Shown one piece after another: positions 1 through 48,781 of a DNA stretch of 64,000 bases. The stretch is from assembly GCA_030680575.1 (NCBI GenBank), contig JAUXVI010000054.1:62001-126000 (forward strand), given 5' to 3'. Position 1 is the first letter of the stretch. Each line of letters opens with the position of its first letter. The DNA comes from Hylemonella sp. GTDB lineage: Bacteria > Pseudomonadota > Gammaproteobacteria > Burkholderiales > Burkholderiaceae_C. Below the pieces are notes generated by a model, which saw only the letters and a program-made list of their open reading frames with translations, was not told where the DNA came from and made no database searches. A program made the translations under genes and the position numbers.

Positions 1-397
1 TCGGGCTTCAGCCCTTGATGGTCGTGCGCTGGCAGCTACTGATTTTGTAGCGCGCAACCTGTTCGAGATGACGCCTGAGTGGCTGGTGCAAGACGGCGTG
101 GCCGACAAGTGGCTGGTCGACCCACCGCGCGAAGGGGCCTTTGCCCTGGCCAAGGCGCTGGCCGATTTGCATCAGCAAAAGATCGATCCGTCAGCCAATC
201 CACCCACGGCGGGGGCCGCCGGCTGGACGCCGCCGCGACGTATTGTCTATGTGAGCTGCAACCCGGCGACGCTGGCGCGCGACGCGGGGCTGTTGGTGCA
301 TCAGGCGGGATATCGTTGCGTCGCGGCCGGTGTGGTCAACATGTTCCCGCACACGGCCCATGTGGAGAGCATGGCGGTGTTCGAACTGGACGCTTGA
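1..397 (+). CDS. rlmD: 23S rRNA (uracil-5-)-methyltransferase RlmD, 3' part
   Basis: The frame is open from base 2 to the stop at 395-397, so the gene enters from the left edge and only the C-terminal 131 codons are present. RlmD transfers a methyl group from S-adenosylmethionine to U1939 of 23S rRNA. The fragment carries the RlmD/TrmA-family motifs [19 protein letters not shown] (catalytic Cys) and the ending [10 protein letters not shown]. The first 50 bases are a copy of a dispersed two-hairpin repeat that is read through in frame (residues [16 protein letters not shown]) just before ARNLFEM. The N-terminal RNA-binding half is outside the window. Family assignment is secure. Confidence 0.93.
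3..51 (+). repeat. 49-bp two-hairpin dispersed element, copy 1 (inside rlmD)
   Basis: It begins with the small inverted repeat GGGCTTCAGCCC (3-14) and ends with GCTACTGATTTTGTAGC (35-51), separated by 20 bases. The same architecture and exact 49-base length recur at 18005, 31595, 43630 and 48733. This copy is translated as part of rlmD without a stop. Confidence 0.75.
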
Positions 398-449
398 GGG
401 GAGCCGCAAACGGGTCAGTTCCGGCGTGAGCCGGCTGGCTGCGGCGGGC

Positions 450-842
450 TCAGAGTTTTTCTGAACTGGCCGATGTCTTGCCGCCGTTGCGAGGTTTTGC
501 CTCAGCGGTCTTTTCCTTGCCTTCGTCGACCGGCTTCTTGTCTTCGATGATTTCTTCTTTTTCGGCCACGGCCACGCCGACATTGGGGGCCTGGCCCTCG
601 ATCTTGTTGTCGCGCATGTACTGGTCCATCTCCTTCCAGCCATCGAAGACGGCGGTCTTGGAGGCCTTCTCGTTCAGGCGATAGCAGTCCTCAATGCCGC
701 GCAGGGCATGACGGCAGGCGCCGCCAATGGCCCTGGCATCCGCCTCGCGCTGGGCAATGCGCGGGTCGGGGCCCATGCCCGGAATGTCGCAAGCGGCAAG
801 CAGCAGGGCAAGGGCAGGGATGAGCAGGAGGCGCGGCGTCAT
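450..842 (-). CDS. Small lipoprotein of unknown function
   Basis: This 130-residue protein has a lipoprotein signal peptide (hydrophobic residues 5-17, lipobox LLAAC with the acylated Cys at 18). A cysteine-containing segment (GGACRHALRGIEDCYRL) and a WKEMDQYM motif follow, and the tail is rich in Lys and Glu. The middle part resembles a conserved hypothetical family of Burkholderiales that I cannot name. The two cysteines in residues 40-55 could form a disulphide in the periplasm. It lies downstream of the terminator of the Bax-inhibitor gene and convergent with rlmD, so it is probably transcribed alone. Confidence 0.75.
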   Translation of the reverse strand: MTPRLLLIPALALLLAACDIPGMGPDPRIAQREADARAIGGACRHALRGIEDCYRLNEKASKTAVFDGWKEMDQYMRDNKIEGQAPNVGVAVAEKEEIIEDKKPVDEGKEKTAEAKPRNGGKTSASSEKL

Positions 843-920
843 GGGGTATGCGGGTAGGCGTTACTGACTTTATCGGCAATTGGCGGCCCGGGTTGAGGGG
901 CTGCGGGAGGTTACGGATGA

Positions 921-944
921 AAAAAGGCCCGAAAGGGCCTTTTT
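921..944 (-). terminator. Rho-independent terminator after the Bax-inhibitor-1 gene
   Basis: A perfect stem AAAAAGGCCC/GGGCCTTTTT closes a GAAA tetraloop. Read on the minus strand it follows the stop codon at 965 by about 20 bases and ends in a T run. The symmetry would also let it stop plus-strand transcripts. Confidence 0.85.
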
Positions 945-4581: not shown

Positions 4582-5706
4582 TCAATGGGCCGGAGGATAG
4601 AACAGGCTTGGACCAGCCTGATCCAGTTGACTGCATCCGCACAAGGCCATGGCGATTTCCAGTTCGTCACGCAGCAGTCGCAGGACATGGGCGACGCCGA
4701 CGGCGCCGGCATTGGCCAGCCCATAGATGTAAGGGCGTCCCAGCAGGACCGCATTGGCACCCAGTGCCATGGCTTTGAGCACATCGGTGCCGCGACGGAT
4801 ACCGCCATCCACCAAGATGGGCATGGCGCCCGCCAAAGCTTCGACGATATGGGGCAAGACGTGTGCCGTGGCGGCGGCCGTATCCAGCGTGCGCCCACCA
4901 TGGTTGGAGACGATGACGCCGCCCAGGCCGAGCCGGGCTGCTTGGCGCGCGTCATCTTCATGCAGCACGCCCTTGAGCAGAATGGGCAGTCGGGTTTGGG
5001 TCTGCAGCCACGCGACATCCTCCCAGGTCGGTGCATGACGCAGCAGGCCGTCAAACAGGGCGCTCTGGCCGGGGCCCAGCGTCACCCCAGGCGGCGGTGG
5101 CAGGCCGTCCAGGTTGACGGCGCGTACACCTGTCGGCAAGCGGAATCCGGCACGGCGTTCGCGGTCGCGCGCGCCGCTGGTGGGGGCGTCAACGGTGAGC
5201 ACCAGCGCCTCGTAGCCGGCAGCCTCCGCACGTCGCACCAGTTCACGCGTGAAGCCGCGGTCGTGCTGGATGTAAAGCTGGAACCACAAGGGGCCACGCC
5301 CGGGCTCCGGCAGCATGGCCTGTGCAATCACTTCCAACGGGAGGCTGGCCTGGGTGCTGAGCACCAGACCGGCACCCAGTGCCGCAGCAGCATGCGCTGT
5401 GGCCAGCTCACCATCGGGGTGGGCCATGGCCTGGTAGGCCACCGGCGCCAACAAAATAGGATGGGCCAGTGTGCGACCGAGCAATTGGACCCGGGTGTGA
5501 CCGCCGGCCAGTGGCTGTAGTACACGTGGCATCAGCTGCAGAGCGCTCCAGGCTTGCCGGTTGGCCTGCAGTGTCAGTTCGTCCGCGGCGCCGCCGCTGA
5601 AATACGCCCAGGCGTTGTCGTCCAGGCGCGTGCGGGCGTGCGTTTCGTGGTCGGCCAGGTTGACCACCTGGTCGGGAACGCGGGGGAGGGCTGGCATGGT
5701 GCTCAT
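4582..5706 (-). CDS. FMN-dependent alpha-hydroxy-acid oxidizing protein
   Basis: This 374-residue protein belongs to the FMN-dependent alpha-hydroxy-acid dehydrogenase family (lactate, glycolate and mandelate oxidising enzymes). Visible hallmarks are AYFSGGAADE near the N-terminus, QLYIQHDR, LVLTVDAPTSGARDRERR, the FMN-binding lysine in PILLKGVL, the catalytic histidine and arginine in VSNHGGRTLD, and LVDGGIRRGTDVLKA. The exact substrate cannot be told from sequence. The ATG at 5706 (MSTMPALP) is preferred because it follows the piuC stop by five bases; longer starts run into piuC. It is the third gene of a receptor-piuC-oxidase unit, so it is probably iron-regulated. Confidence 0.9.
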   Translation of the reverse strand: MSTMPALPRVPDQVVNLADHETHARTRLDDNAWAYFSGGAADELTLQANRQAWSALQLMPRVLQPLAGGHTRVQLLGRTLAHPILLAPVAYQAMAHPDGELATAHAAAALGAGLVLSTQASLPLEVIAQAMLPEPGRGPLWFQLYIQHDRGFTRELVRRAEAAGYEALVLTVDAPTSGARDRERRAGFRLPTGVRAVNLDGLPPPPGVTLGPGQSALFDGLLRHAPTWEDVAWLQTQTRLPILLKGVLHEDDARQAARLGLGGVIVSNHGGRTLDTAAATAHVLPHIVEALAGAMPILVDGGIRRGTDVLKAMALGANAVLLGRPYIYGLANAGAVGVAHVLRLLRDELEIAMALCGCSQLDQAGPSLFYPPAH

Positions 5707-5711
5707 GGGCT

Positions 5712-6395
5712 TCAGGTGTCGGCCCACATGCGCAGCAGGTTGTGGTAGGTGCCGGTCAGTGCGGTGGTCTCGGCACATTCACCGTGCTGCTGGCGCAGGC
5801 GCAGCAGGTTCATGTCGAGGTCGTAGAGCAGGCGGCGCTGCTCATCACTGCGCACCATGCTTTCAACCCAGAAAAAGCTGGCGAGGCGGTGGCCGCGGGT
5901 GACGGGCAGAACTTCGTGCAGGCTGGTGCTCGGGTAGAGCACCATGTCGCCGGCGGGCAGCTTGATGCGCTGATTGCCGTAGGTGTCGGCGATAGACAGT
6001 TCACCGCCGTCGTATTCGTCGGGGTTGGCCAGAAAGAGGGTGCAACTCACATCGGAGCGTACGCGCTGCTTGTCGCTGCGCGAGTGCATGACCGCGCCGT
6101 CGATGTGTTGGCCGTAGTAGTTGGCGTCGCCGCCATAGCGGTTGAACAAGGGGTTGAAGATCTTCTTCGGCAGGGCGGCCGAAAAGAAGATGGCATGACG
6201 GTTGAGCGCCTGCCGCACCAGTGTCTGCAGCGAACGTGCGGCTTCGCTGGTTTGCGGCAACTGCTCGTTGTTTTTGGCTTGCACGGCCTGTGGCCCTGCC
6301 GTGGCTCGCCCATCCAGCCACGAAGCCGCATCGAGAAGGGTGCGTGCCTGGTGCAGTTCTTCGGGCGATAGGACGTTTTTCAGATGAATCAGCAT
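5712..6395 (-). CDS. piuC: Fe(II)/2-oxoglutarate-dependent dioxygenase, PiuC/YbiX (PKHD-type)
   Basis: This 227-residue protein matches PiuC/YbiX along its length. The facial-triad metal ligands are visible in [12 protein letters not shown] (His and Asp) and [14 protein letters not shown] (second His, then the 2-oxoglutarate-binding Arg). PiuC genes commonly sit beside catecholate-siderophore receptors and are Fur-controlled; the physiological substrate is not established. The gene follows the receptor by 59 bases and precedes the FMN oxidase by five bases on the same strand, which supports one transcript. Confidence 0.93.
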
Positions 6396-6454
6396 GGCGG
6401 CGGCTTTGCTGGAGGGCTGGCGCGGGCCAGCCCCCGGGCGCTTTCCAGGTTGGG

Positions 6455-8695
6455 TTAGAACTGCACTTTCAGGGTCATCTGCACGGACTGCGGAGCACCG
6501 GGGCTGTAGAAGCCGCGGTACAGCGAGTCAGCATACAACTCGTTGGTGACGTTGGTGACATTCAGCTTGAGCGAGGTCATGTCGGTGATCATGTACTCGG
6601 CCATCAGGTCCAGTGTGGTGAAACTTTTGGCGCTGACGTGGCGCGCCCCTTCCGGGTTCTGCTTGTCGCGGTAATTGAGGCCGCCGCCGACGCGCAGTTT
6701 CGGTGTCAGGCGGTAGGTCGTCCACAGGCTGGCACTGTGCAGCGGTGTCAGGCCGGGGCGGTCGCCTTTGCCCTGGGCGCCGGTGCCATTGGCGGGGATG
6801 ACCACATTGCTCTCGTCAATCTTGGCCTCGGGGATCCAGGTCCAGGAGACAAAAGCATCCCACTTGGGCGTGATGCGTCCGGCAATGTCGATGTCCAGAC
6901 CGGCCGCATGGCGCTTGCCGGACAACAGTTGCTGCGTCGCGGCGGTGTCGGGGTCGGTGTTGCGCTCGTTGTATTTCTCCGAGTAGAACAGCGAGGTTGC
7001 GAGCATGAGGCGGCGCTCAAAGAGGTCGAACTTGCCGCCGACTTCGAGGTTGCGGCTTTCTTCCGGCGGGGTGTTGGCATCTTTGGCGCTCGGTCCCTGG
7101 ACTGCGTACTGGTAGACGTCACCCGAGGTGTTGAACGACGTGCCGTAAGACACATGGTAGGACGCCGAATCGCTCGGCTGGTACAGGGCGCCCAAGCGCG
7201 GACTCCAAAGTGAATCGGAGCGCGAGTTGCTCGCGCCGGCAGCCGTGTTGTAAGTGGCGTTGAAATTGTCGTTGCGCAGGCCGGCGATCAGCTTGACGGT
7301 GGGCGTCAGCTCCATGGTGTCCTGCACATACACCCCCAAGGTGCGAGCGTTGAACTTGTTCATGGGCGCATCGCCGCGCAGGTCGGGCCGTGTGTCGCCA
7401 TCGTTGGGCGTGCCGACCGTCGTGAAGAGACCGCTGGTGACACCTGCGAAGTTGTTGTTGCGCAGGGCATCTTCGTTGGACCAGTCAACCCCGGTGATGA
7501 TCTTGTGCTTCTTGCCCAGCCAGTTGAAGTCGTTGCTGTAGTCGCTTTGCAGCAGGGTCGTCGTGCTGATGCCGATACGTCCCTTCGGGTTGCGTTGCAG
7601 GCCCGTGCTGTCCGTGATGGCGGCGACTGACGTCGGGGCGGGCGCCCGGAAAACGACTTGGCTCGACCACAAGTCGCGCTCATAACGCCCGTGGCGCAAG
7701 GTGGTCTTGAGTTCGCCGCCGTCCGAGAAGCGGTGGACATGGTTCAGGGTGCCGTAGGTGGCTTTGCCCTTGTTGTAGTCGCTGGTCAGACCGTAGAAGT
7801 TCTTGGCATCCAGCTTGGTCTGGATTTCTCCGTTGCTGAGTATCCAGGGATGGTTGTAGTTGGGGCGGTTGTTGTACTCGAGATAGTACAGGCCGACCGA
7901 GAACTCGTCCGTCGTGCCGATGCCCCAGCGGTAGGTCGGGGCGATGCCCTTCTTGCTGACCTTGGCACCCCAGTTGTCGGCGTCATGCGTCATCACGTTC
8001 ATGCGCAGTGCTGCGTCGTCGCCGGTCTTGAGGTTGAAGTCGCCCGTGACGCGCAGTTCGTTGCCGGTCCCGACCGTGGTCTTGACCTCATGCGAATTCA
8101 TCAGGAAAGGCTTTTTGTTGACCTGATTGACCACGCCGCCGGTGGAGCCGCGGCCGAACAGCATGGAGGCCGAACCTTTCAGCACTTCCACCCGGTCGTA
8201 GTTGAAGGTGTCTCGTTCGTAAATCGAAGAGTCCCGCATGCCATCCACATAGATGTCGCCGGCTTGGACCAGCGAGAAGCCACGCAGGCGGATGTCCTCT
8301 TCGCCGGTTTCGCCGGCCTGGAAGGTCACACCCGCCGTGCTACGCAGTACCTCCTTGAAGTCATCAAGATTGCGGTCGTCCATCAGGCGTTCCGTGATCA
8401 CGGTGATGGATTGGGGGATGTCACGCAGTTTTTGCTTGCCTTTGCCGATTTCCGTTTCGGTGGCCCGCAGCGATGTCTTGGAGGCGGGCGTCTCGGCCGT
8501 TTCCTTCACTTCCACGGTGGCCAGTGTCTTGCCGCTTTCCGGTATGGCCTGCTGGGCGAACGCGTTCATGGAACCGGCCAGCAGCATGGCACCCAAGGGC
8601 AGCAGCGTCGAGGGTGCTATTGGTTTGATAGCGTTGGGCGCCGTAAAGACGGGACGGAAAGCCGATTTCTTGCTGATTTTTTTTCGTTTTGACAT
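6455..8695 (-). CDS. TonB-dependent siderophore receptor (Fiu/catecholate type)
   Basis: This 746-residue outer-membrane receptor shows a long signal peptide (lysine-rich start, hydrophobic core ending SMNAFA), a plug domain ([16 protein letters not shown], then [20 protein letters not shown]) and a 22-strand barrel ending in the aromatic VQMTLKVQF. It imports a ferric siderophore using TonB-ExbBD; association with piuC favours a catecholate. A Fur-box-like operator lies about 110 bases upstream. The signal-peptide region contains part of the dispersed two-hairpin repeat (8616-8632), read as NAIKPIA. The ligand is inferred from context only. Confidence 0.93.
8616..8632 (-). repeat. Partial copy of the dispersed element inside a receptor signal peptide
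   Basis: The 17 bases GCTATTGGTTTGATAGC match the GCTA...TAGC hairpin half of the 49-bp element; the following bases (GTTGGGCGC) still resemble copies at 43630 and 48733, but the AGGGCT end is lost. It is translated as NAIKPIA between the charged start and the hydrophobic core of the signal peptide. Confidence 0.5.
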
Positions 8696-8803
8696 GGTTG
8701 TAGAGCCTTGGGTGGATGAAGGTGGCTGGCTACAACCGGGCGCAATTCAAAACTGCGTGGCATGGCTTGCTGCGTGAAAAGTAAAGTAAAGAAATTATAC
8801 ACA

Positions 8804-10092: not shown

Positions 10093-12486
<2,394 letters not shown>

Positions 12487-17994: not shown

Positions 17995-17999
17995 ATAAA

Positions 18000-18024
18000 A
18001 AAAGGGGCTCCAGGCCCCTTTCTT
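18000..18024 (+). terminator. Terminator of dnaB, overlapping a dispersed element
   Basis: AAAGGGGC-TCCAG-GCCCCTTT followed by CTT lies directly behind the dnaB stop. Its right part is also the first hairpin of the 49-bp dispersed element (18005-18053), so the repeat appears to serve as the terminator. Confidence 0.7.
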
Positions 18025-18053
18025 ATTGCGCGATTAGCTATTCTTTTTATAGC
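18005..18053 (+). repeat. 49-bp two-hairpin dispersed element, copy at dnaB/phoH junction
   Basis: The element begins with GGGCTCCAGGCCCC and ends with GCTATTCTTTTTATAGC (18037-18053); spacing matches the other copies exactly. On the minus strand its last bases provide the final leucine codon and the TAA stop of the PhoH-type gene. Confidence 0.65.
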
Positions 18054-30178: not shown

Positions 30179-31590
30179 AGTACCTCAGCACCCGCGGCCA
30201 TGCCGACCGCAAGCGTTTCTGCGAAATCCTGCTCGAAGGCCTGGCGCCCGATGGCGGCCTGTACCTGCCCGAGTCCTACCCGCAGGTGGACGATGCCACG
30301 CTGACCAAGTGGCGCAGCCTGCCGTATGCCGATCTGGCGTTCGAGATCCTGTCGCTTTATATCGACGACATCCCGGCCGACGACCTGCGCGCCATCTGCC
30401 GCAAGACCTACACCGAGGCAGTGTTCGGCACGAAAGAAATCGTGCCATTGCGCCAACTGGAAAACGGCCTGTACCTGGAAGCCCTGTCCAACGGCCCGAC
30501 GTTGGCTTTCAAGGACATGGCGATGCAGTTGCTGGGCAACTTGTTCGAGTACGAGTTGGCCCGCCGCGGCGAGCAGCTCAACATCCTGGGTGCCACCAGT
30601 GGCGACACCGGCAGCGCGGCCGAATACGCCATGCGCGGCAAGCAGGGCGTGCGCGTTTTCATGACCAGCCCGTTTGGCCGCATGAGCCCGTTCCAGCAGG
30701 CGCAGATGTTCAGCCTGCAGGACGCCAACATCCACAACCTGGCAGTCAAGGGCGTGTTCGACGACTGTCAGGACATCGTCAAGGCCGTCTCCAACGACCT
30801 GGACTTCAAGCGCAAGTACAAGATCGGCACCGTCAACTCCATCAACTGGGCGCGCCTGGTGGCGCAGGTGGTGTACTACTTCGCCGGTTACTTCCAGGCC
30901 ACCAAGAACAACAGCGAGCGCGTCAGCTTCACCGTGCCGTCCGGCAACTTCGGCAACGTCTGTGCCGGCCACGTGGCGCGCATGATGGGCCTGCCGATCG
31001 ACACGCTGGTGGTGGCCACCAACGAGAACGACGTGCTCGACGAGTTCTTCCGCACCGGCGTCTACCGCGTGCGTGGCAGTGCCGACACGCACGAGACTTC
31101 CAGCCCGTCCATGGACATCTCCAAGGCCTCGAACTTCGAGCGTTTTGTGTTCGACCTGCTGGGCCGCGACGGCGCCAAGACCAAGGCCTTGTTCGGCGAG
31201 CAACTGGGCAAAACCGGTCAGTTCGACCTGAGCCAGGACCCGGCCTTCGCCCAGGCGCGTCAGCGTTATGGTTTCTCCAGCGGCAAGAGCACCCATGCCA
31301 ACCGCTTGGCTACCATCAAGGACACGTTCGAGCGTTTCGGCGGCATGATCGATACCCATACCGCTGACGGCCTGAAGGTGGCGCGCGAGCACCTGAGCGC
31401 CGGCGTGCCGATGATCGTGCTGGAGACGGCGCTGCCGATCAAGTTTGCTTCAACCATCGTCGAGGCGCTGGGACGCGAGCCGGACCGGCCAGCCAAGTTC
31501 GAGGGCATTGAAAACCTGCCCAAGCGCGTGACGGTGCTCGAGGCGGACGTGCAGGCCGTCAAGGCCTACATTGTCGCCCATTGCAATTAA
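30175..31590 (+). CDS. thrC: Threonine synthase
   Basis: This 471-residue PLP enzyme converts O-phosphohomoserine to threonine. It has the typical start MKYLSTRGHADRKRFCEILL, the PLP-lysine segment GPTLAFKDMAMQLLG and the phosphate-binding glycine loop GATSGDTGSAAEYA. The ATG overlaps the hom stop (ATGA), so translation is coupled. It ends next to a consensus copy of the dispersed two-hairpin element. Confidence 0.97.
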   Translation: MKYLSTRGHADRKRFCEILLEGLAPDGGLYLPESYPQVDDATLTKWRSLPYADLAFEILSLYIDDIPADDLRAICRKTYTEAVFGTKEIVPLRQLENGLYLEALSNGPTLAFKDMAMQLLGNLFEYELARRGEQLNILGATSGDTGSAAEYAMRGKQGVRVFMTSPFGRMSPFQQAQMFSLQDANIHNLAVKGVFDDCQDIVKAVSNDLDFKRKYKIGTVNSINWARLVAQVVYYFAGYFQATKNNSERVSFTVPSGNFGNVCAGHVARMMGLPIDTLVVATNENDVLDEFFRTGVYRVRGSADTHETSSPSMDISKASNFERFVFDLLGRDGAKTKALFGEQLGKTGQFDLSQDPAFAQARQRYGFSSGKSTHANRLATIKDTFERFGGMIDTHTADGLKVAREHLSAGVPMIVLETALPIKFASTIVEALGREPDRPAKFEGIENLPKRVTVLEADVQAVKAYIVAHCN

Positions 31591-31594
31591 AATA

Positions 31595-31643
31595 GGGCTC
31601 TAGCCCTTGTGGAATAAGCGTGACCAGCTATCAAAAACATAGC
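31595..31643 (+). repeat. 49-bp two-hairpin dispersed element, best-preserved copy
   Basis: The element runs from GGGCTCTAGCCC (31595-31606) to GCTATCAAAAACATAGC (31627-31643). It lies five bases after the thrC stop and 17 bases before mobB, in the only gap between those genes. From memory this version is close to the sequence widespread in Comamonadaceae; I cannot verify that here. Confidence 0.8.
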
Positions 31644-32197: not shown

Positions 32198-33459
32198 ATG
32201 CCCCACGCCCTCCCTTGAAAGCGCTGGACGAGGCCCTGGCCGAGCTGCTGGCCCATGCCCAGCCGCTGCCTGGTATTGAAGACATCAGCACTTTTGACGG
32301 CGACGGCCGCGTGCTGGCGCGCGACATCGTCTCCGCTCTGCACGTGCCGCCGCAGGACAACAGCTCGATGGACGGCTACGCCGTGTGCTGCGCCGACGTG
32401 CGCGAGGCCGGTGTCGTGCTGCCGGTGTCGCAGCGCATCCCGGCCGGTGCCAGCGGTGCGCCGCTGCAGCCCGGCAGCGTGGCGCGCATCTTCACCGGCG
32501 CGCCGGTGCCGGCGGGGGCCGACGCCATCGTCATGCAGGAAGAGTGTGAGGCGGTGGGCGAGGGCAGTGTGCGCGTCAATGCCGTTCCCCAAAATGGCCA
32601 GTGGATCCGCCGCGCCGGCGAAGACGTCACTCGCGGTGCCGTGGTGCTATCAAAAGGGGAGCGCCTGGCGCCGTCTTCATTGGGTCTGGCGGCCAGTATT
32701 GGCATGAGCACGCTGCCGGTGGTGCGCCGCCCGCGTGTGGCGCTGTTCTCTACCGGCGACGAGCTGGTGATGCCGGGCGACATCGCGCCCGAGCACATGC
32801 CGCCCGGTGCCATCTACAACTCCAACCGCTTCTTCCTGCGTGCGCTGCTGCAACGCCTGGGCTGCGACGTCACCGACTACGGCATCGTGCCCGACCAGCG
32901 CGACGCCACCCTGGATGCCCTGCGCGACGCCGCGCAGCAGCACGACCTGATCCTCACCAGCGGCGGTGTCTCGGTGGGCGAGGAAGACCACATCAAGCCA
33001 GCCGTGCAGCAGCTGGGCGAGCTCGACCTCTGGCAGATCGCCATCAAGCCCGGCAAACCGTTTGCGTACGGCAAGATCTACCGCGATCAAGGTGCTGGGG
33101 CGCGCAGTGCGCAAGACGCCTGCCACTTCGCCGGCCTGCCGGGCAACCCGGTGTCCAGCTTCATCACCTTCCTGGTGCTGGTGCGTCCCTTCCTGCTCAA
33201 GCTGCAGGGCGTGGCGGACGTGGCGCCCGTGAGCGTGGCGCTGCCGGCGCATTTCGACTGGCCGCGTGCCGACAAGCGCCGCGAGTTCCTGCGCGTGCGC
33301 CGCAATGCGGCCGGCGGGCTGGAGCTGTTCCCCAACCAGAGCTCGGGCGTGCTGACCTCGGCCGTCTGGGGCGACGGTGTGGTGGACAACCCGGCTGGCC
33401 AGACCATTGCCAAAGGCGATACCGTGCAGTTCATTTCCTTTGCGGAGCTGATGGGATGA
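32194..33459 (+). CDS. moeA: Molybdopterin molybdenumtransferase MoeA
   Basis: This 421-residue enzyme inserts molybdate into adenylated molybdopterin. Domain order is MoeA N-terminal (QDNSSMDGYAVCCADV, IFTGAPVPAGADAIVMQEEC), the MoCF-binding domain (LFSTGDELVMPG, LILTSGGVSVGEEDHIKPA) and the C-terminal beta domain. It overlaps mobB and moaD by four bases each, so the four genes are translationally coupled. Confidence 0.96.
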   Translation: MNAPRPPLKALDEALAELLAHAQPLPGIEDISTFDGDGRVLARDIVSALHVPPQDNSSMDGYAVCCADVREAGVVLPVSQRIPAGASGAPLQPGSVARIFTGAPVPAGADAIVMQEECEAVGEGSVRVNAVPQNGQWIRRAGEDVTRGAVVLSKGERLAPSSLGLAASIGMSTLPVVRRPRVALFSTGDELVMPGDIAPEHMPPGAIYNSNRFFLRALLQRLGCDVTDYGIVPDQRDATLDALRDAAQQHDLILTSGGVSVGEEDHIKPAVQQLGELDLWQIAIKPGKPFAYGKIYRDQGAGARSAQDACHFAGLPGNPVSSFITFLVLVRPFLLKLQGVADVAPVSVALPAHFDWPRADKRREFLRVRRNAAGGLELFPNQSSGVLTSAVWGDGVVDNPAGQTIAKGDTVQFISFAELMG

Positions 33460-42455: not shown

Positions 42456-42665
42456 CACTATCTCCCCGGGTGCGTGTGCGGTGTCTTGCGCGATCCGATA
42501 TCGTAGTGCAGTTTGGCTGTTTGACTAACAGCTCATCAGTCCCTTACCGTACGATCCGATTGCGTTTTCTATCCGCTACAGTTCAAATTTTCAGGGTGAG
42601 GTAAACGCAGCAGGTGTCGCGCGGCATTCTTTGCCCCGAACATCTAACAGAAAAGAGTGAGAGAC

Positions 42666-43598
42666 ATGAGCACCCTGATCTACACCCACCAAGCCTGTTT
42701 CAACCACCGCCCCGGCCCGCACCACCCGGAGTCACCCGAGCGGCTGGAAGCCGTGTTGGCAGCCTTGAAAACGCCGGAGTTCGCCGACGCCGTCTGGCGC
42801 GATGCACCGCTGGGCACCTTCGAGCAGGTGCTGCACATCCACACGCCCGACTACGTGGAGACGGTGCAGGCCGTCTCGCCTATCAGCGGCTACCGCGCGT
42901 TGGACGCTGGCGACACCATCCTGTCGCCCGGCTCGCTGGAGGCGGTGATGCGCTGTGTGGGCGCGGCCTGCGCCGGGGTAGACGATGTGGTGGCGAAGCA
43001 GGCCAGGAATGTGTTTTGCGCCACGCGCCCCTGCGGCCACCACGCCGAGGCGGATAAGGCCATGGGTTTTTGCGTCTTCAACCAGGCGGCCATTGCCGCC
43101 ATTCATGCGCGCCAGCAGCACGGCCTGCAGCGCGTGGCGGTGGTGGACTTTGACGTGCACCACGGCAACGGCACGCAGAACTCGTTTTACGACGACCCGG
43201 ATCTGTTCTACGGCTCCTGCCACCAGGGCCAGTTCTACCCGGGCACCGGTGCGAGGCACGAGACCGGCGTGGCGGGCAACATCGTCAACGTGCCGTTCCC
43301 CCGGGGCACCGGCTCGGCCGCCTTCCGCGCCGCCATGGCAGACGTGCTGCTGCCCGCGCTGCGCGAGTTTGCGCCCGAGCTGCTCATCATTTCGGCCGGT
43401 TTCGACGCCCACCACCTGGACCCGCTGGGCGGGCTGAAGTTCACTGACGAGGATTACCACTGGATCACGCGCGAGCTGCTGCAGGTGGCCGACGAGACGG
43501 CCGGCGGCCGCGTGGTGTCCGTCCTTGAAGGCGGCTACAGCCTGGAAGGCCTGGCCAGCGGTACCGCCGCACACGTGCGGGCTTTGATGGGGCGCTAA
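42666..43598 (+). CDS. Histone deacetylase-family amidohydrolase
   Basis: This 310-residue zinc-dependent deacetylase shows the family motifs HPESPERLEAVLAAL, RPCGHHAEADKAMGFCVFNQ (paired catalytic His), VVDFDVHHGNGTQNSFYDDP (Zn-binding Asp and His) and LLIISAGFDAHHLDPLGGL. Bacterial relatives hydrolyse acetylated polyamines or act in acetoin-type utilisation; the substrate here is not fixed. The ATG at 42666 (MSTLIYTHQACFNH) is preferred over a GTG nine bases earlier. It is likely a single-gene unit. Confidence 0.92.
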   Translation: MSTLIYTHQACFNHRPGPHHPESPERLEAVLAALKTPEFADAVWRDAPLGTFEQVLHIHTPDYVETVQAVSPISGYRALDAGDTILSPGSLEAVMRCVGAACAGVDDVVAKQARNVFCATRPCGHHAEADKAMGFCVFNQAAIAAIHARQQHGLQRVAVVDFDVHHGNGTQNSFYDDPDLFYGSCHQGQFYPGTGARHETGVAGNIVNVPFPRGTGSAAFRAAMADVLLPALREFAPELLIISAGFDAHHLDPLGGLKFTDEDYHWITRELLQVADETAGGRVVSVLEGGYSLEGLASGTAAHVRALMGR

Positions 43599-43629
43599 CA
43601 CCAGGTGTCGCTCTGTGACGACGGATTAT

Positions 43630-43678
43630 GCTATTGATTCAGTAGCGTCTTGCGCATATTCCGTGAGGGCTGCAGGCC
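43630..43678 (-). repeat. 49-bp two-hairpin dispersed element, copy after the deacetylase gene
   Basis: Minus orientation: on the plus strand it starts GCTATTGATTCAGTAGC (43630-43646) and ends AGGGCTGCAGGCC (43666-43678). Spacing equals the other copies. It lies 31 bases after the deacetylase stop, in a convergent gap. Confidence 0.75.
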
Positions 43679-43738
43679 TTTTTGGTCTGGATATGGAGGT
43701 CGATGGGTTCGTTGGTTTCCACGTCATCGAGGCTGAAA

Positions 43739-44230
43739 CTAGCGTCCCCACTTGCGACGCAGTTGTTCCTTTTGCTCGTTGGTCAGAATGGCGTCGATCC
43801 GTTTGCGCGCCTTGAGGGATGACTCAAACATTTCCTTCTGCGCATCCACCATGGTGCTGAACGCCTTGCGAGCCTCCGTCTCGTCCAGCCCGCCGGGGCC
43901 GAACATGTTGTTCATGTGGAAGCCTTGCTGCTGCATGTTGCCCATGAGCTGCCAGTGCGCCTTGGCGGTTTCCTCCTGGATCTGATCGATCTTCTTGCGC
44001 TGATCCGCGCTGAGGTCGAGCCCCCAGTAGTCGCCGCGCCCGGCATAGCCGCCCATCATGCCGGGACCCATGCCGTAGCCGCCTTGGCCGTAACCACCCA
44101 TCATGCCCGGGCCCATACCCATGCTGCCGCCATAGCCCCCCATCATCCCGCTGCCCATGCCGTAGGGTTGGGACCAGGCCGAACCGACGAATAAAAGACA
44201 GGCCGCCATCGTTGTCAGTGCTTTTTTCAC
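43739..44230 (-). CDS. Periplasmic Spy/CpxP-like protein with Met/Gly-rich repeats
   Basis: This 163-residue protein has a signal peptide (MKKALTTMAACLLFVGSAWS), then about 40 residues of GMGPGMMGGYG-type repeats, then a helical Spy/CpxP-like region with LSADQRKKIDQIQEETAKAH and TNEQKEQLRRKWG. Spy-family proteins are ATP-independent periplasmic chaperones or metal sensors. The Met-rich repeats could bind copper(I) or silver, which is inference. I use the GTG at 44230 because AGGAG lies six bases upstream; the ATG six bases earlier would touch the Shine-Dalgarno. It lies beside a cytochrome locus. Confidence 0.82.
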   Translation of the reverse strand: MKKALTTMAACLLFVGSAWSQPYGMGSGMMGGYGGSMGMGPGMMGGYGQGGYGMGPGMMGGYAGRGDYWGLDLSADQRKKIDQIQEETAKAHWQLMGNMQQQGFHMNNMFGPGGLDETEARKAFSTMVDAQKEMFESSLKARKRIDAILTNEQKEQLRRKWGR

Positions 44231-44391
44231 ATCCATCTCCTGTGCAGTTGATGGGCGCTGAATCAAGACGCCGAGGGGCCGCGCCCTGAACTCTCCCCGG
44301 TATCTGCATTCTCTTCCTGCTTGCGGTGCCGTGCGCATGCCCACACTCTGCGTGCAGGCATCTTGAACGGAGGGGCTTGTTCAGCACATCG

Positions 44392-45147
44392 TTAGCAGTC
44401 GTCCGCGTGCCGGGTGCTGGATGCAGCGCGGCTGCAACTCGCCTCAGCTTGTTGCACGCTGGGGGCTTGCTGCCATTCCCAGCTCCAGTACGACAGCACC
44501 GTCGCCAGCAGCAGGATGGCGAGCCAGGCGTGGTTGCGTTTGGCCAGGTCGGGCCCCGTGCCTTCCATGCGGCCGGTGAGCATGGGGGTGGCCTGGTTGC
44601 GGCGTCGCATCACGCTCAAGGCCAGCAGCATGGCCAGGTGCGCCAGGACCAGCCAGAGGAACAACTCGCCCACGGCCTCGTGAATTTCCTCAAGCCATTC
44701 ACCGCCCCAGTCGTGGAAGACGGCGTAGCCGCTCAGGGTCAGCGGTAGCACGGCAAGCAGCATGGCGATGACGGCCATGGCCATGGCCAGGTACTGCCCC
44801 TGGCGCCAGCTCACCTGGCCCGGGCCGGACCAGGCGGCTTTCACGCTGCGCAGCCAGAACGGGGCGTTGGCAACCTTGCCCCACAGCAGCGACAGCCGCG
44901 CCTGCCGCGGGCCGAACAGGCCATACAGGACGCGAAAGCCGAGCAGGCCGGCCATGCTGTAACCGAGCACGACGTGCACCAGGCGCAGGCGCTCGCCGTC
45001 GGCCGTGAGGTAGGCCCCGACAAAGCACAGGGCAAACAGCCAATGGAACATGCGGGTCGGGGCGTCAATCACGCGACGTGTTGTGCCGGCCTTGCGTGGC
45101 ACCGGGCTGGCCGACAAGGCCGGGGAAGAGGCGGGGGCGGTGTTCAT
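44392..45147 (-). CDS. Cytochrome b (b561/hydrogenase-type) membrane subunit
   Basis: This 251-residue protein is a four-helix diheme cytochrome b. Heme-ligand histidines are likely in TRMFHWLFALCF, LRLVHVVLGYSM and LFLWLVLAHLAM. It should pass electrons between the quinone pool and the diheme cytochrome c encoded just upstream (20 bases). GGAG eight bases before the ATG at 45147 decides the start over an ATG 24 bases earlier. The C-terminal part after the last helix is cysteine-containing and poorly conserved. Confidence 0.9.
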   Translation of the reverse strand: MNTAPASSPALSASPVPRKAGTTRRVIDAPTRMFHWLFALCFVGAYLTADGERLRLVHVVLGYSMAGLLGFRVLYGLFGPRQARLSLLWGKVANAPFWLRSVKAAWSGPGQVSWRQGQYLAMAMAVIAMLLAVLPLTLSGYAVFHDWGGEWLEEIHEAVGELFLWLVLAHLAMLLALSVMRRRNQATPMLTGRMEGTGPDLAKRNHAWLAILLLATVLSYWSWEWQQAPSVQQAEASCSRAASSTRHADDC

Positions 45148-45167
45148 GGGGTCACTCCGGTTCATCG

Positions 45168-45695
45168 TCATTGGAAAGCGCGGCGGTAGCGGGCATCGAG
45201 GCCGCTGGGAAAACGCAACGCGTCATCGTCAAAACTGCCTTGCTCGGCGCGGGTGTGGCAGGCGGCGCAGTTGGCGGCGCTTTTCACGCTGGCGTGCTGC
45301 CAGACGGCGGCATCCAGCTTGCGGTGCTTGCGTTCAAACCAGGCTGAGCGGGTGATGCGGTCTTGCGGCGGTTCTTCGCGGACGCGTTTGTCGCTGCCCG
45401 CGTTGGCCTGCAGCCAGTGGCTGATCTGCTGCACGGTGGCCGCATCCAGCGCGGCGTCGGTGCCGTAGTGCTGCTCCAGACCCTGCATGACGCGATGCCA
45501 TGAGCGGGCCGGCAGCAGGCCCGGCGGGTAGGCCAGATGGCAGGCGGTGCATTCCTGCTGGTAGCTGGGCAGCATCTGGCGCGGCTGCAGGGTCTTGCTG
45601 TCGGCAAAGGCTTCGCTTGCCATCAGGCTGGCGAAAAAAACCAGCACCAGTGCGCTCCACTTGAGCGCGAGTCCTGTTTGCGGTGTTGTTGTCAT
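45168..45695 (-). CDS. Diheme cytochrome c (DHC)
   Basis: This 175-residue periplasmic protein has an N-terminal signal peptide (about 12-31) and two c-type heme sites, CTACH (49-53) and CAACH (143-147). Length and spacing fit the DHC family known from Rhodobacter and Shewanella, where DHC donates electrons to the oxygen-binding heme protein SHP. Here it sits 16 bases after the SHP-like gene and 20 before cytochrome b, the order expected for an SHP-DHC-cytochrome b electron chain. Confidence 0.9.
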   Translation of the reverse strand: MTTTPQTGLALKWSALVLVFFASLMASEAFADSKTLQPRQMLPSYQQECTACHLAYPPGLLPARSWHRVMQGLEQHYGTDAALDAATVQQISHWLQANAGSDKRVREEPPQDRITRSAWFERKHRKLDAAVWQHASVKSAANCAACHTRAEQGSFDDDALRFPSGLDARYRRAFQ

Positions 45696-45711
45696 GGGGG
45701 CTCCAATCGGT

Positions 45712-46119
45712 TCAGGGTTTCAGGCTGTTCAGGTAGGCCAGCACGTCGGCTTTCTCGTTGGCACTGCATTCACGGCTCAGCACGTCCTTGCAGTTGCGGC
45801 GCAGCCACTTGTCGACCTTGGCCGTCTCGGTGAAAGCCTGGGGGTTGAAGGCGGGTGCCAGCGCGGCAATGGCCTTGCCCGTGCTGGCGTGCTTGCCCTG
45901 GCTGGTGGGGGGCGTGCCATGGCAGGAGGCGCAGGACCAGTCAGCGCCATGCTTGCTGCTGAAAAAGACCTTGCCCCGGTCGGCATTGCCGGGGGCGCTG
46001 GCTTGCGCATTCCAGCGGATCAGCTGCTCGGTGATGCTGGTGTCGGCAGCCTGCGCCGGTGGCAGCACCAGCATGGCGGCCAGCAGGCTGGCCAGGGGAA
46101 TGAAGGTCTTGTTATTCAT
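45712..46119 (-). CDS. SHP-like monoheme cytochrome c (DUF1924)
   Basis: This 135-residue periplasmic protein has a signal peptide (cleavage near residue 25) and one heme site, CASCH (63-67). Its C-terminal region KVDKWLRRNCKDVLSREC matches sphaeroides heme protein (SHP), including Asn109, which corresponds to the unusual asparagine axial ligand that opens on O2 or NO binding, and the flanking Cys110 and Cys118 that may form the disulphide. GGAG seven bases before the ATG fixes the start. It heads the cytochrome operon and is divergent from the PepSY gene. Confidence 0.88.
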   Translation of the reverse strand: MNNKTFIPLASLLAAMLVLPPAQAADTSITEQLIRWNAQASAPGNADRGKVFFSSKHGADWSCASCHGTPPTSQGKHASTGKAIAALAPAFNPQAFTETAKVDKWLRRNCKDVLSRECSANEKADVLAYLNSLKP

Positions 46120-46308
46120 GGTTTGCTCCGTCGTGGTTTCGGTATGGCATGCATGGTGCGCGCCGCCACCTGTACCCGGACTGAAGGTGCTGTTCATCGG
46201 CGGTTCACTTTTTCCTGCGCAGAATGAAGCCTGCCCCGACGTACCGGTGCGCGCCAGGTGCGTGACCGTGCCGCTGGGGGAATAAGATGTCCCCAACGGA
46301 GTCCATCC
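46120..46308. promoter_or_regulatory. Divergent control region of the SHP operon and the PepSY-two-component operon
   Basis: The 189-base gap separates the starts of the SHP-like and PepSY genes. A TAAGAT hexamer at 46283-46288 lies within a GGGGA...TCCCC inverted repeat (46277-46294) and could be a -10 for the plus-strand operon. The response regulator at 46620 is the obvious candidate to bind here. Confidence 0.4.
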
Positions 46309-46620
46309 ATGCGTAACACCCTTGCCATTGCTTTGCTGCTGGCCGCCGGCTTGATGCCGCTGGCCAGCCAGGCCGAAAGTGGCCACGACCACGACCGCGC
46401 CCGTGCTGCCTTGCAGGCCGGAGAAATCCTGCCCTTGCCCGTCGTGCTGGAGCGGGTTGCCAAAGAGCACCCCGGCAATGTGCTGGAAGTCGACCTGGAG
46501 CGCGAGAAGAACCGGTGGGTGTACGAGCTCAAGATCCTGCAAAGTGGCGGCGGCCTGCTCAAGCTGGAGGTTGACGCCAAGGACGCCAGCGTCATCAAGC
46601 GCCGTGAGGAAAAACGCTGA
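46309..46620 (+). CDS. Periplasmic PepSY-domain protein
   Basis: This 103-residue protein has a signal peptide (MRNTLAIALLLAAGLMPLAS) and a single PepSY domain (LPVVLERVAKEHPGNVLEVD through LEVDAKDASVIKRREEKR). PepSY proteins modulate peptidases or signal sensors and are often encoded with two-component systems. Its stop codon shares one base with the start of the response-regulator gene, so it is translated with it and may report a periplasmic signal to the kinase. Confidence 0.87.
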   Translation: MRNTLAIALLLAAGLMPLASQAESGHDHDRARAALQAGEILPLPVVLERVAKEHPGNVLEVDLEREKNRWVYELKILQSGGGLLKLEVDAKDASVIKRREEKR

Positions 46621-47291
46621 TGCGGGTACTGCTGGTTGAAGACGAGCCGACGCTGGCAGCGCAGTTGCGCCAGGTTCTGCAGGACGCCGGCTACACCGTG
46701 GACCATGCCGACAACGGGCGCGACGCCTGGTACATGGGCGGCGTGCAGGCTTACGACGCCGTGGTGCTGGACCTGGGCCTGCCGGTGATGGATGGCCTGA
46801 GCGTGCTCAAGCGCTGGCGCAGCGAAGGCATGGCAGTTCCGGTCCTCATCCTGACCGCGCGCGACCAGTGGCACGAGAAGGTGGCCGGCATCGATGCCGG
46901 TGCCGATGACTACCTCACCAAACCGTTTCACACCGAGGAACTGCTGGCCCGGGTGCGTGCCCTGATCCGCCGGGCCAGCGGCTTGGCGTCGCCGCTGCTG
47001 GCGTGCGGCCCCTTGTCGCTGGACACACGCAGCGGCCGCGTGATGCTGGACGGCCAGCCGGTCCACGTGACCGCGCACGAATTCAAGGTGCTGTCCTACC
47101 TCATGCATCACCCCAACGAACTGGTGCCGCGCACGGTGCTCACCGAGCATCTGTACGCACAAGACTTCGAGCGCGACTCCAACACCATCGAGGTCTTTGT
47201 GGCCCGCCTGCGCAAGAAGTTGCCGGCCACGATGATTGAAACCGTGCGCGGCCTGGGCTACCGGCTCAACCTGCCGGCCAATCCGGTCTGA
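46620..47291 (+). CDS. OmpR/PhoP-family response regulator
   Basis: This 223-residue regulator has a receiver domain (acidic Glu7-Asp8, phospho-acceptor Asp51 in VVLDLGLPVMDG, Lys in YLTKPFHTEEL) and a winged-helix DNA-binding domain (LTEHLYAQDFERDSNTIEVF, then VARLRKKL). It is closest in layout to PhoP/QseB regulators. It sits between the PepSY gene and its cognate sensor kinase, opposite the SHP cytochrome operon, which is its likely target. Confidence 0.94.
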   Translation: MRVLLVEDEPTLAAQLRQVLQDAGYTVDHADNGRDAWYMGGVQAYDAVVLDLGLPVMDGLSVLKRWRSEGMAVPVLILTARDQWHEKVAGIDAGADDYLTKPFHTEELLARVRALIRRASGLASPLLACGPLSLDTRSGRVMLDGQPVHVTAHEFKVLSYLMHHPNELVPRTVLTEHLYAQDFERDSNTIEVFVARLRKKLPATMIETVRGLGYRLNLPANPV

Positions 47292-47293
47292 GC

Positions 47294-48745
47294 ATGAAGG
47301 CAGCCTGGTCGCGCTTCTTGCGCTGGCGCCTGCTGGGGGCCACGCTGGTGGCCGTCTCCGTGGCGCTGCTGGGTGCCGGCTTTCTGCTCTCCAGCCTGTT
47401 CCGCACGCATGTCACGGCGCAGTTCGAAGCGCAACTCCTGCGCCAGCTCGACCAGCTCACCGCCGCGCTGGAGCCCGACGCGCAGCAGCGCCCGCAACTC
47501 ACCTCGTCCTTGAGCGACCCGCGCTGGCAGACACCGTACTCGGGCTTGTACTGGCAGATCGAGGCCCAGGGCGCGGCTGATGCAGCGGCCACCCCAGAGC
47601 GGCCTGTGCTGCGCTCGCGCTCGCTGTGGGACACCGAACTGCCGCTGCCCCGCGATACCCTCGGCCAGGCTGACGTGCATCGCCACCTGATCCCGGGGCC
47701 GAACGGGCAGGTGTTGCTGGCGCTCGAACGCAGCGTGCAATTCATCGCGTCGGCGCCAAGCGCCTCCAGTGCCGCCGCCCAGGCAACGCCAGGCTGGCGT
47801 CTGGTCGTGGCGGGCGACGTGGCAGAACTCGAAAGCGCGGTGGCCAGCTTTTCCAGGCAGCTCGGTCTTTCGCTGGCGGTGCTGGGGGCGGCCCTGCTGG
47901 CCGCAGCCTGGGCCCAAGTGACGCTGGGCCTGCTGCCGCTGCGCAAGTTGCAGGCGGCCGTGCAGTCCATCCGTCAGGGCCGCGAACAGCGCCTGGAAGG
48001 GGCGTTCCCGGCCGAGGTTGACCCCCTGGTGCAGGACTTCAACCAGGTGCTCGACCAGAACGAGCAGGTGGTCAAGCGCGCACGCCAGATGGCGGGCAAT
48101 CTGGCGCACGCCATCAAGACCCCGCTGGCGGTCATCAGCAACCTGGCCGAAGACCCGGGCTCGGCGCCGCGTGCCTGGGCCAGCCAGTTGCAGGAACAGG
48201 TGGCCACCATCCGTCATCAGGTCGACTGGCATCTGGGCCGGGCGCGCGCCTCCAGTGCCGGCGTTGCCGGCCTGCGCACCGAAGTCGAGCCGGTGCTGCA
48301 GGGGCTGGTGCGTGTCATGCGCAAGGTGCATGCGCAGCGCGAAGGCCGGCCCGGGTTGACCATAAACGTGTTGCCGATGGCGGCTGGTTTGCAGTTCGCC
48401 GGCGAGTCGCAAGACCTGCAGGAAATGGCCGGCAACCTGCTGGACAACGCCTGCAAGTGGGCGCACAGCCGGGTGCAGCTGGTCGCAAGCCAGGCCCAGG
48501 GCCAGCTCCACATCACGATTGAAGACGATGGCCCTGGCTTGAGCGAGACCGAGCGCGGCCGCGTTTTTGAACGGGGCGTCAGAGCCGACGAGCGCACCCC
48601 CGGGACGGGCCTGGGTTTGGACATTGCCCGGGAACTGGCGGGTCTGTACCAGGGCGAGGTCAGACTGGATGCCTCCCGCCTGGGCGGCCTGAAAGCCGAG
48701 CTGATGCTGCCTGGTTTCAGCAAGCGCGATGCGCTATTGAATTAA
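47294..48745 (+). CDS. PhoQ-like sensor histidine kinase
   Basis: This 483-residue membrane kinase has a first helix (about 10-35), a periplasmic sensor region (about 36-185), a second helix, a HAMP-like linker, the phospho-acceptor NLAHAIKTPLAVISNLAED (His272) and an ATP-binding domain with DNACKWA, DDGPGL and GTGLGLDIARELAGLY. It follows the response regulator by two bases. The last residues (ALLN) and the stop lie inside a copy of the dispersed two-hairpin element, so the C-terminus has been altered by that repeat. Confidence 0.93.
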   Translation: MKAAWSRFLRWRLLGATLVAVSVALLGAGFLLSSLFRTHVTAQFEAQLLRQLDQLTAALEPDAQQRPQLTSSLSDPRWQTPYSGLYWQIEAQGAADAAATPERPVLRSRSLWDTELPLPRDTLGQADVHRHLIPGPNGQVLLALERSVQFIASAPSASSAAAQATPGWRLVVAGDVAELESAVASFSRQLGLSLAVLGAALLAAAWAQVTLGLLPLRKLQAAVQSIRQGREQRLEGAFPAEVDPLVQDFNQVLDQNEQVVKRARQMAGNLAHAIKTPLAVISNLAEDPGSAPRAWASQLQEQVATIRHQVDWHLGRARASSAGVAGLRTEVEPVLQGLVRVMRKVHAQREGRPGLTINVLPMAAGLQFAGESQDLQEMAGNLLDNACKWAHSRVQLVASQAQGQLHITIEDDGPGLSETERGRVFERGVRADERTPGTGLGLDIARELAGLYQGEVRLDASRLGGLKAELMLPGFSKRDALLN

Positions 48746-48781
48746 TAGCGTCGCGCACATATTTGACGAGGGCTGGAGGTA
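48733..48781 (-). repeat. 49-bp two-hairpin dispersed element at the end of the sensor kinase gene
   Basis: On the plus strand it starts GCTATTGAATTAATAGC (48733-48749) and ends AGGGCTGGAGGTA (48769-48781). The kinase stop TAA at 48743-48745 lies in the first hairpin. The first half is well preserved and the GGGCT...AGCCC hairpin is degenerate. Confidence 0.75.

What the first reader, a model, noticed from the sequence alone, without database searches (positions are those of the whole stretch)
3..48781. A 49-bp two-hairpin repeat family in five copies plus a partial one
Five sites (3, 18005, 31595, 43630, 48733) share one design: a GGGCT-nn-AGCCC hairpin, about 20 bases of linker, and a GCTA-(9)-TAGC hairpin. 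Each is exactly 49 bases with the same spacing, three on the plus and two on the minus strand. A sixth site at 8616 keeps one half. The constant length with variable loops suggests selection for RNA structure or mobilisation by a RAYT-like transposase rather than chance. I remember a near-identical sequence in Comamonadaceae genomes but cannot confirm its documentation.
Basis: partly seen in the sequence, partly recalled or inferred. Interest (0 to 1): 0.7.

Follow-up and report, generated by a model that had tools for sequence, protein, structure and literature searches.

The report
Conserved 57-bp DNA element, Comamonadaceae
The repeat is real and occurs hundreds of times in genomes of one bacterial family, where its key bases stay nearly unchanged even inside conserved genes, which points to an as yet unknown DNA signal rather than a jumping element.

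Summary
The 49-bp spacing is exact at the five sites. The full element is about 57 bp, and the sixth site is a full copy with one base deleted. It occurs in part of its family (35 of 120 genomes); a class-wide draw found it only in that family (2 of 369, capped scoring).

Hairpin 1 is not a family feature, and arm covariation is weak at best. A RAYT link is not supported. Between two species of the genus, conserved columns differ at 3.7%, variable columns at 28.9%, four-fold sites at 21.0%. Copies lie in frame inside conserved enzymes (MutL, PurK), often without length change, and keep a very rare codon (ATA in 52 of 64 Ile codons, against 16 of 428 nearby).

Best reading: a DNA-level site kept in place by selection, probably bound by a dimeric protein. 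Function is inferred. Two fragments were listed in 2017 as unexplained motifs (PMC5217627).

The parts
1..51 (+). element copy, cut by the window start (whole copy is G000:C33:61995-62051)
8616..8671 (-). element copy with one base deleted; inside the N-terminal (signal-peptide-like) coding region of a TonB-dependent receptor gene 6455-8695 (-)
17997..18053 (+). element copy between convergent dnaB (16474-17994 +) and a phoH-family gene (18047-19801 -); hairpin 1 is a strong stem here and the phoH stop codon lies in the palindrome
31587..31643 (+). element copy between thrC (30175-31590 +) and mobB (31661-32197 +); found at this place in other genera
43630..43686 (-). element copy between convergent genes (histone deacetylase-like 42657-43598 +, LTXXQ-family 43739-44344 -)
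48733..48789 (-). element copy at the end of a sensor kinase gene (47294-48745 +, whose stop codon is in the palindrome), facing genes on the other strand (a small called ORF 48868-49116 -, then YebC-family 49177-49887 -)
32646..32702 (-). weak element copy inside moeA (32194-33459 +), 18.5 bits

Best explanation
A dispersed DNA-level signal of part of the Comamonadaceae. Each copy is about 57 bp: an AAAT/TTTT block, GGCC-nnnn-GCCC, a variable spacer, GCGC, and the palindrome GCTAY-N7-RTAGC with an A/T-rich centre. A/T-rich blocks at about columns 4-7, 26-31 and 47-50 lie roughly two helical turns apart; this phasing was not tested against chance. Copies sit in either orientation, mostly squeezed between a gene end and its neighbour, and also in frame inside conserved enzymes. 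Shown: the motif bases are held at orthologous places while the rest drifts, and in coding copies the constraint acts on codons, not only on the protein. Inferred: a sequence-specific, probably dimeric DNA-binding protein reads the duplex at these sites, as a chromosome-wide (nucleoid or DNA-transaction) platform that is avoided in promoter regions. The protein and its function are not identified.
For:: 50 own/G014 pairs, 44 gapless ones used; columns of at least 1.2 bits differ at 28/748 (3.7%), columns under 0.5 bits at 191/660 (28.9%), four-fold sites in flanking genes at 3646/17378 (21.0%). In the 14 gapless pairs found by gene homology rather than by the motif: 12/238 against 53/210 (p = 8.8e-10); at the palindrome's ATA, 52 of 64 Ile codons of orthologues are ATA, against 16 of 428 Ile codons outside the element in the same aligned stretches, and 57 of 3,325 in own genes; 16 of 86 copies lie inside called genes, 8 in each orientation; of 65 intergenic copies with both neighbours called, 4 lie between divergent and 18 between convergent genes; columns 5-6 are AA 158, TT 41, AT 1, TA 0 of 204; such AA/TT step equivalence suits duplex reading; the thrC site is occupied in 13 of 80 named-genome loci.
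Against: No binding protein is known or was found. 31 of the 50 pairs involve G014 loci picked by the motif, which favours conserved motifs; the independent subset (19 pairs, 14 gapless, 13 of these coding) is small and protein constraint also acts there. The motif is far longer (about 46 bits) than usual binding sites. G072 spacing looks random (CV 1.02 over 86 hits copied from a capped list), with no pattern that would name a function. At 18005 one arm looks like a good terminator. Some coding copies go with extra residues.
Confidence: 0.5

Rival explanations
1. REP/BIME-like mobile palindrome spread in the past (by RAYT or another enzyme) and now fixed, with some copies exapted.
For: Position near gene ends and between convergent genes, either orientation, many copies. 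Copies on plasmids and in viral contigs. Some coding copies go with extra residues against orthologues lacking the element: +10 in L001 (two orthologues), +12 in ThiL and +16 in L162 (one each).
Against: No +19-residue gain in 25 comparisons at 11 genes; 8 of 25 show no change, in five genes. Copies are old and shared across genera. RAYT presence does not follow the element and elements are not concentrated around it. Variable columns have drifted fully while the core is kept.
Confidence: 0.2
2. DNA uptake sequence-like signal: competent cells prefer fragments with the motif, so it accumulates and is kept in place, in coding sequence too, with clade dialects.
For: Occurs without length change in several genes, is clade-restricted, and has a dialect in G072. 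50 hits at E <= 0.01 in 200 kb of G072.
Against: The motif is much longer and rarer than the roughly 10-bp, thousand-copy uptake sequences of Neisseria and Haemophilus (recalled; papers seen only as listing and start of abstract). Present on plasmids and viral contigs. Competence of these bacteria was not tested.
Confidence: 0.13
3. RNA-level element of mRNA 3' ends (terminator or stabilising hairpins).
For: Gene-end position. At 18005 hairpin 1 is a strong stem beside a T-tract in own and sister species, with different but pairing bases. The own-genome rows show slightly more pairing and more pair types than shuffles.
Against: Copies lie mid-gene in MutL and PurK, where termination would be harmful. 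Both orientations are used in co-directional gaps, 24 and 19. None of the 30 strongest couplings in 204 copies is an arm pair. Of the four element sites inside the two stretches scanned, only 31595 gave a terminator-like match, on the opposite strand; 18005 was not flagged.
Confidence: 0.1

Closest known systems
Motif pairs ATAGCT(N)22CAAAAG (Polaromonas naphthalenivorans CJ2, 125 copies) and GCTTAT(N)5AAGCG (Acidovorax ebreus TPSY, 114 copies), Tong, Schliekelman and Mrazek 2017, PMC5217627 (abstract, passages and section 13 read)
   Same: Both patterns occur inside copies collected here (2 and 13 of 219 rows). Same habits in that paper: mostly intergenic, close to genes, 34 copies (101 intergenic) and 44 of 107 between convergent genes, 4 of 107 divergent in A. 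ebreus, 18 of 125 inside genes in P. naphthalenivorans.
   Different: In the section read they are separate, unexplained motif pairs. It does not join them, give the full 57-bp unit, or show orthologous conservation or codon-level constraint. That they are the same family is my inference from the match of pattern and habit; those two genomes were not searched here.
REP/BIME elements and RAYT
   Same: Short palindromic repeats near gene ends, both orientations.
   Different: Kept at orthologous places across genera, in frame inside conserved enzymes, no RAYT link found.
DNA uptake sequences (DUS/USS) of Neisseriaceae and Pasteurellaceae
   Same: Clade-restricted, present in coding sequence, dialects (the known side is recalled).
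   Different: About 57 bp in several blocks, hundreds rather than thousands of copies; uptake bias untested.
Rickettsia palindromic elements (RPE) inside protein genes
   Same: Palindromic repeat read in frame inside genes.
   Different: RPEs add residues by insertion (recalled); here several genes show no length change.

Membership tests
REP elements mobilised by RAYT | short palindrome, many copies, near gene ends | tested here: met
REP elements mobilised by RAYT | cognate RAYT gene flanked by the repeats | tested here: not met
   one RAYT locus per genome, 21 loci, 127,693 bases: 11 hits at E <= 0.001, none in the own locus L045; three lie within 500 bp of the Y1 match (L176, L179, L183). 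Only L179 has hits close on both sides (375 and 680 bp)
REP elements mobilised by RAYT | RAYT presence follows the repeat | tested here: not met
   21 of 22 rich, 10 of 13 intermediate and 28 of 40 element-free genomes have Y1_Tnp (75 of the 120 surveyed genomes examined; relatedness not corrected for)
REP elements mobilised by RAYT | GTAG or CGTC tag next to the hairpin | not tested
   no dedicated test; RTAGC in the palindrome gives GTAG in a minority of copies
DNA uptake sequence | over-represented motif in one clade, in coding sequence too | tested here: met
DNA uptake sequence | preferential uptake of DNA bearing it | not testable with these tools
   needs an uptake assay
Intrinsic transcription terminator | GC stem followed by a T-tract in the family as a whole | tested here: not met
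   hairpin 1 67% paired; terminator-like match at one of the four element sites inside the stretches scanned
Structured RNA family | covariation of paired arms | tested here: inconclusive
   small excess over shuffles in the own set, helix z-scores from -1.2 to 2.5, none of the 30 strongest couplings pairs stem arms; hairpin 2 is nearly invariant and so says little
Rfam families | match at gathering score | tested here: not met
   0 matches in the window, 4227 families
Protein-binding DNA site | a protein that binds it | not testable with these tools
   needs pull-down or gel shift

The most novel reading that the evidence does not exclude
A long (about 57 bp, several blocks) chromosome-wide DNA signal that has been written into coding sequences in place, without net insertion, and is then kept by selection on the DNA across genera: a kind of dispersed DNA signal longer and more complex than uptake sequences or nucleoid-protein sites that I know of, read by an unknown protein.
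Probability: 0.3. Interest if true: 0.82.

Novelty: new variant of a known kind. Interest (0 to 1): 0.62.

Why it matters
Repeats near gene ends are usually taken for mobile or neutral. Here the motif bases resist change about as strongly as first and second codon positions (3.7% each) at many places at once, and even go with rare codons inside MutL and PurK. Something in these cells probably reads it. The motif is also a possible marker of origin: a copy of 34.3 bits sits between dfrA12 and aadA2 in an integron plasmid, and many enterobacterial plasmid records match the same part of the consensus, which suggests that this cassette came from Comamonadaceae.

Tried and rejected
RNA structure: tested by pair counts, mutual information and folding; only a weak signal, so not adopted. 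A middle hairpin (AGCGCTTG-n5-CAAGCGCT) can be read in many G072 copies but is broken in the own-genome consensus and covaries little (z 2.3 in G072, 2.5 in other genera, -0.4 in the own genome).

Promoter: TTGTCA and TATYAA stand 16 bases apart in the consensus, but no promoter-like match was reported at the four window elements in the two stretches scanned and orientation is not tied to gene starts. Dropped.

Replication polarity or even spacing: in G072, 86 hits copied from the capped list are, by quarter, 9+/9-, 7+/18-, 6+/13-, 12+/12-; spacing CV 1.02; GC skew of 20 sampled stretches did not mark origin and terminus clearly. The two middle quarters are uneven; no claim made.

Viral scan counts cannot be compared: motif and control patterns both hit the 120-stretch limit. 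Only the model scan of the 80 loci given for each is used: 26 hits in 18 of 80 loci against 0 in 80. The motif loci already hold part of the element by choice, so this favours them; 62 of the 80 still gave no hit.

ThrC tree: carriers of the thrC site are scattered. Against the 3 rows that carry elements elsewhere only, 2 changes are needed, and 69 of 500 shuffles are as low; the 64 non-carrier rows were not counted. One gain with losses and repeated gains are both open.

G072 gene calls at 70% GC were judged unreliable and are not used. The gene caller for the own genome is a home-made codon-usage script; in the window it calls no gene between 40817 and 42666 although an ORF of 481 aa lies there, and gene starts are uncertain.

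Rows dropped: one search used 86 copies after dropping 7 of 93 rows (duplicates or weak hits); one search dropped 6 of 50 pairs that have gaps or are 56 bases long. Own copies L017 and L019 paired with the same G014 copy, so one of them is not an orthologue. Copy 8616 is counted as intergenic although orthologues show it to be coding. One search counted genome G019 twice for PurK; one search repeats the counts without that. Among the orthologues of L168, genome G010 is present twice, probably with a paralogue. The hit list used holds 49 of the 50 hits.

Literature: searches. No paper naming the full element was seen in those listings. PMC5217627: abstract, passages and section 13 read. PMC12306157 and PMC3733652 were only searched by term (no hits for the six names asked). 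Other papers were seen as listings.
Full report
What was checked. The five sites and the sixth were read directly. GCTA-N9-TAGC stands at each named place, and the 49-base span is exact at the five. The GGGCT-nn-AGCCC arm is perfect at two of them only. Aligning 17 own-genome copies, without gaps apart from one base at 8616, gave a 57-column unit; 82 near-full rows gave the consensus RTCAAATTGGCCTCTAGCCCTTGTCAAATATGCGCAAGCAGCTATYAAATTAATAGC (variable columns are shown by a common base). A covariance model R1 of the 17 copies finds six copies in the window at E <= 1.3e-7, five of them among the 17, and a weak one in moeA.

How many and where. The own genome (3,422,836 bases, 58 contigs) has 101 places with GCTATN7ATAGC and 0 with the reversed pattern. 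R1 gives 150 hits, all 150 candidates that were scored of 1,247 in the first look, the weakest at E = 0.012, so 150 is a floor. In 200 kb taken evenly from the complete genome G072, without regard to the motif, there are 50 hits at E <= 0.01, 29 of them with at least 30 bits. Of 120 genomes of the family 35 have hits at E <= 1e-6, 22 of them with at least 20 of the 46 candidates scored. Of 369 genomes drawn from the class, 2 have hits at E <= 1e-7, both of the own family (only 15 candidates were scored per genome, with strict filters, so weak or rare copies elsewhere can be missed). Among 80 thrC loci of named genomes, 17 have at least one hit at E <= 0.01, one of them a weak Comamonas hit; carriers include Rhodoferax, Polaromonas and Acidovorax. 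The loci labelled Variovorax, Ramlibacter or Limnohabitans had none (flanks of at most 10 kb, many shorter).

Gene context. For 86 own copies a simple codon-usage gene caller gave: 24 between a gene end on the GGCC side and a gene start on the palindrome side, 19 the other way round, 18 between convergent genes, 4 between divergent genes, 16 inside a called gene, 5 at a contig or locus edge. Median distance to a facing stop codon is 9 and 7 bases on the two sides, and several stop codons lie inside the element. In the window the same caller leaves 2,456 divergent and 742 convergent of 10,259 intergenic bases, so divergent places look avoided and convergent ones favoured; the caller misses some genes, so this background is rough.

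Copies inside genes. The 16 coding copies run through open frames, 8 in each orientation. MutL, PurK and ThiL were identified by their solved relatives; names for the other genes were not checked. In MutL 25 of 26 and in PurK 24 of 26 orthologues align without length difference, including four genomes (G001, G013, G016, G021) with no element at E <= 1e-6. By the bases of the palindrome arms, 25 orthologues at 11 genes lack it; own minus lacking is between -2 and +16 residues, 0 in 8 of 25, and never the +19 of a plain insertion. Identity to the lacking, equal-length orthologues inside the element is 2 to 9 of 19 residues, against 63 to 83% around it: the stretch was rewritten, not simply added. 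Against a pure in-place origin stand L162 (+16), ThiL (+12) and L001 (+10). The TonB-receptor copy at 8616 is another coding case, and G002 carries a clear core (GCGCAAGCAGCT...ATAGC) there.

Selection on DNA. Fifty own copies could be paired with G014, of the same genus. In 44 gapless pairs the 17 columns of at least 1.2 bits differ at 28/748 = 3.7%, columns below 0.5 bits at 191/660 = 28.9%; four-fold degenerate sites in flanking genes differ at 3646/17378 = 21.0% and first and second codon positions at 2410/65040 = 3.7%. In 31 of the 50 pairs the G014 locus was found by the motif, which favours this. Nineteen pairs are independent of the motif; in the 14 gapless ones it is 12/238 against 53/210 (p = 8.8e-10), but 13 of these are coding, where protein constraint also plays. 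The codon test is nearly free of both problems: at the ATA of the palindrome, of 64 orthologue codons for Ile 52 are ATA, 6 ATC, 6 ATT, while in the same aligned stretches outside the element ATA is 16 of 428 Ile codons, and in own genes 57 of 3,325.

Occupancy across species. In the two stretches of the window compared with G014 (5,500-21,000 and 30,100-49,900), three of five copies are shared (8616, 18005, 31595), 8616 only as a weak hit of 25.9 bits. At 43630 G014 lacks the whole gap of about 140 bases between the two convergent genes. At 48733 the flank on the kinase side does not align in the fetched stretch. G014 also has a copy in the fetched block (L191 14779-14835) that is not at the place of a window copy by these alignments. 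The 16 coding sites all align with a G014 counterpart. The site after thrC is occupied in 13 of 80 named loci, several of them weakly; in the 18 sequences aligned GCTA is invariant while the second arm decays in some. The ThrC tree shows these carriers scattered, which fits losses, repeated gain, or both.

RNA or DNA. Over 204 copies from several genera the strongest couplings are between neighbouring columns (5-6, 21-22, 30-31, 4-5), and none of the 30 strongest is a stem-arm pair. Columns 5-6 are AA in 158, TT in 41, AT in 1 and TA in 0. AA and TT are the same step of duplex DNA, so this suits a reader of DNA shape; shared descent of subfamilies is a possible alternative, though distant columns couple only weakly (19-31 is the highest at 0.092). 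The own-genome alignment shows slightly more pairing than shuffles (82.9% against 81.3%, 0 of 500 as high), so a minor RNA role is not excluded. The copy at 18005 has a strong stem with a T-tract in the own genome and, with other bases, in G014; the terminator scan did not flag it. It looks like a local re-use.

RAYT. The own genome has one Y1_Tnp gene. Among 75 genomes it occurs in 21 of 22 element-rich, 10 of 13 intermediate and 28 of 40 element-free ones. Around 21 such genes, one per genome (127,693 bases), there are 11 elements at E <= 0.001, about one per 11.6 kb; unselected G072 sequence has about one per 4 kb. Three of the 11 lie within 500 bp of the gene.

Other replicons. 80 viral-contig loci that hold the pattern GCGCN5GCTATN7ATAGC give 26 hits at E <= 1e-4, in 18 loci; 80 loci with the reversed pattern give 0. 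Whether these are phages or host-derived borders was not examined. Plasmid records of Polaromonas, Rhodoferax, Comamonas, Delftia and Diaphorobacter match the typed consensus; of these only the Rhodoferax place was scored with the model (45.1 bits). No phage record of the phage collection matched over 80% of the consensus.

What it most likely is. A DNA signal kept in place, in both orientations, wherever it does little harm, and read as duplex, most likely by a dimeric protein that takes the palindrome as its core. Shown: abundance, clade restriction within the samples searched, conservation at orthologous places, codon-level constraint. Inferred: protein, platform role. The uptake-sequence rival explains in-place origin and dialects well and is kept at 0.13; the mobile-repeat rival at 0.2.

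Known before. Tong and others (2017, PMC5217627; abstract, passages and section 13 read) list two motif pairs in Polaromonas naphthalenivorans and Acidovorax ebreus that occur inside this element (2 and 13 of 219 rows), with the same gene-end habit, unexplained and not joined. They also state that Rhodoferax ferrireducens had the most significant pairs of the genomes analysed (140). So the family was probably glimpsed; its extent, anatomy and constraint were not found in print in the searches listed.

Noticed in passing
window 34187-34655: About 470 bases absent from the sister species G014 (about 61 bases there), with two nested inverted repeats (34241-34271/34553-34583 and 34331-34380/34445-34494); probably another insertion.
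   Followed up: partly
L674 795-848 (plasmid record MF554641.1, between dfrA12 and aadA2): A copy of 34.3 bits lies between two resistance cassettes; in many of the listed plasmid records the matching place is annotated as a DUF1010 protein, and 1,796 plasmid records match the typed consensus, mostly enterobacterial. Suggests that the cassette came from Comamonadaceae.
   Followed up: partly
window 32646-32702: Weak element inside moeA, present and somewhat stronger in G014 (23.4 bits).
   Followed up: partly
window 43598-43739: The gap of about 140 bases between two convergent genes, element included, is missing in G014 almost exactly from one gene end to the other.
   Followed up: partly
window 12522-14864 and 21566-23683: Two sodium:solute symporter genes with matching blocks at 72-76% DNA identity, 8,792 bases apart.
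   Followed up: partly
window 37381-37415 and 40925-40959: Inverted 35-base repeat, 89% complementary, 3.5 kb apart.
   Followed up: no
G072 (L374-L393): A dialect of the element in which many copies can form AGCGCTTG-n5-CAAGCGCT in the middle.
   Followed up: partly
G015: Twenty Y1_Tnp matches, several with equal scores, in one element-rich genome: perhaps an active IS200-like family.
   Followed up: no
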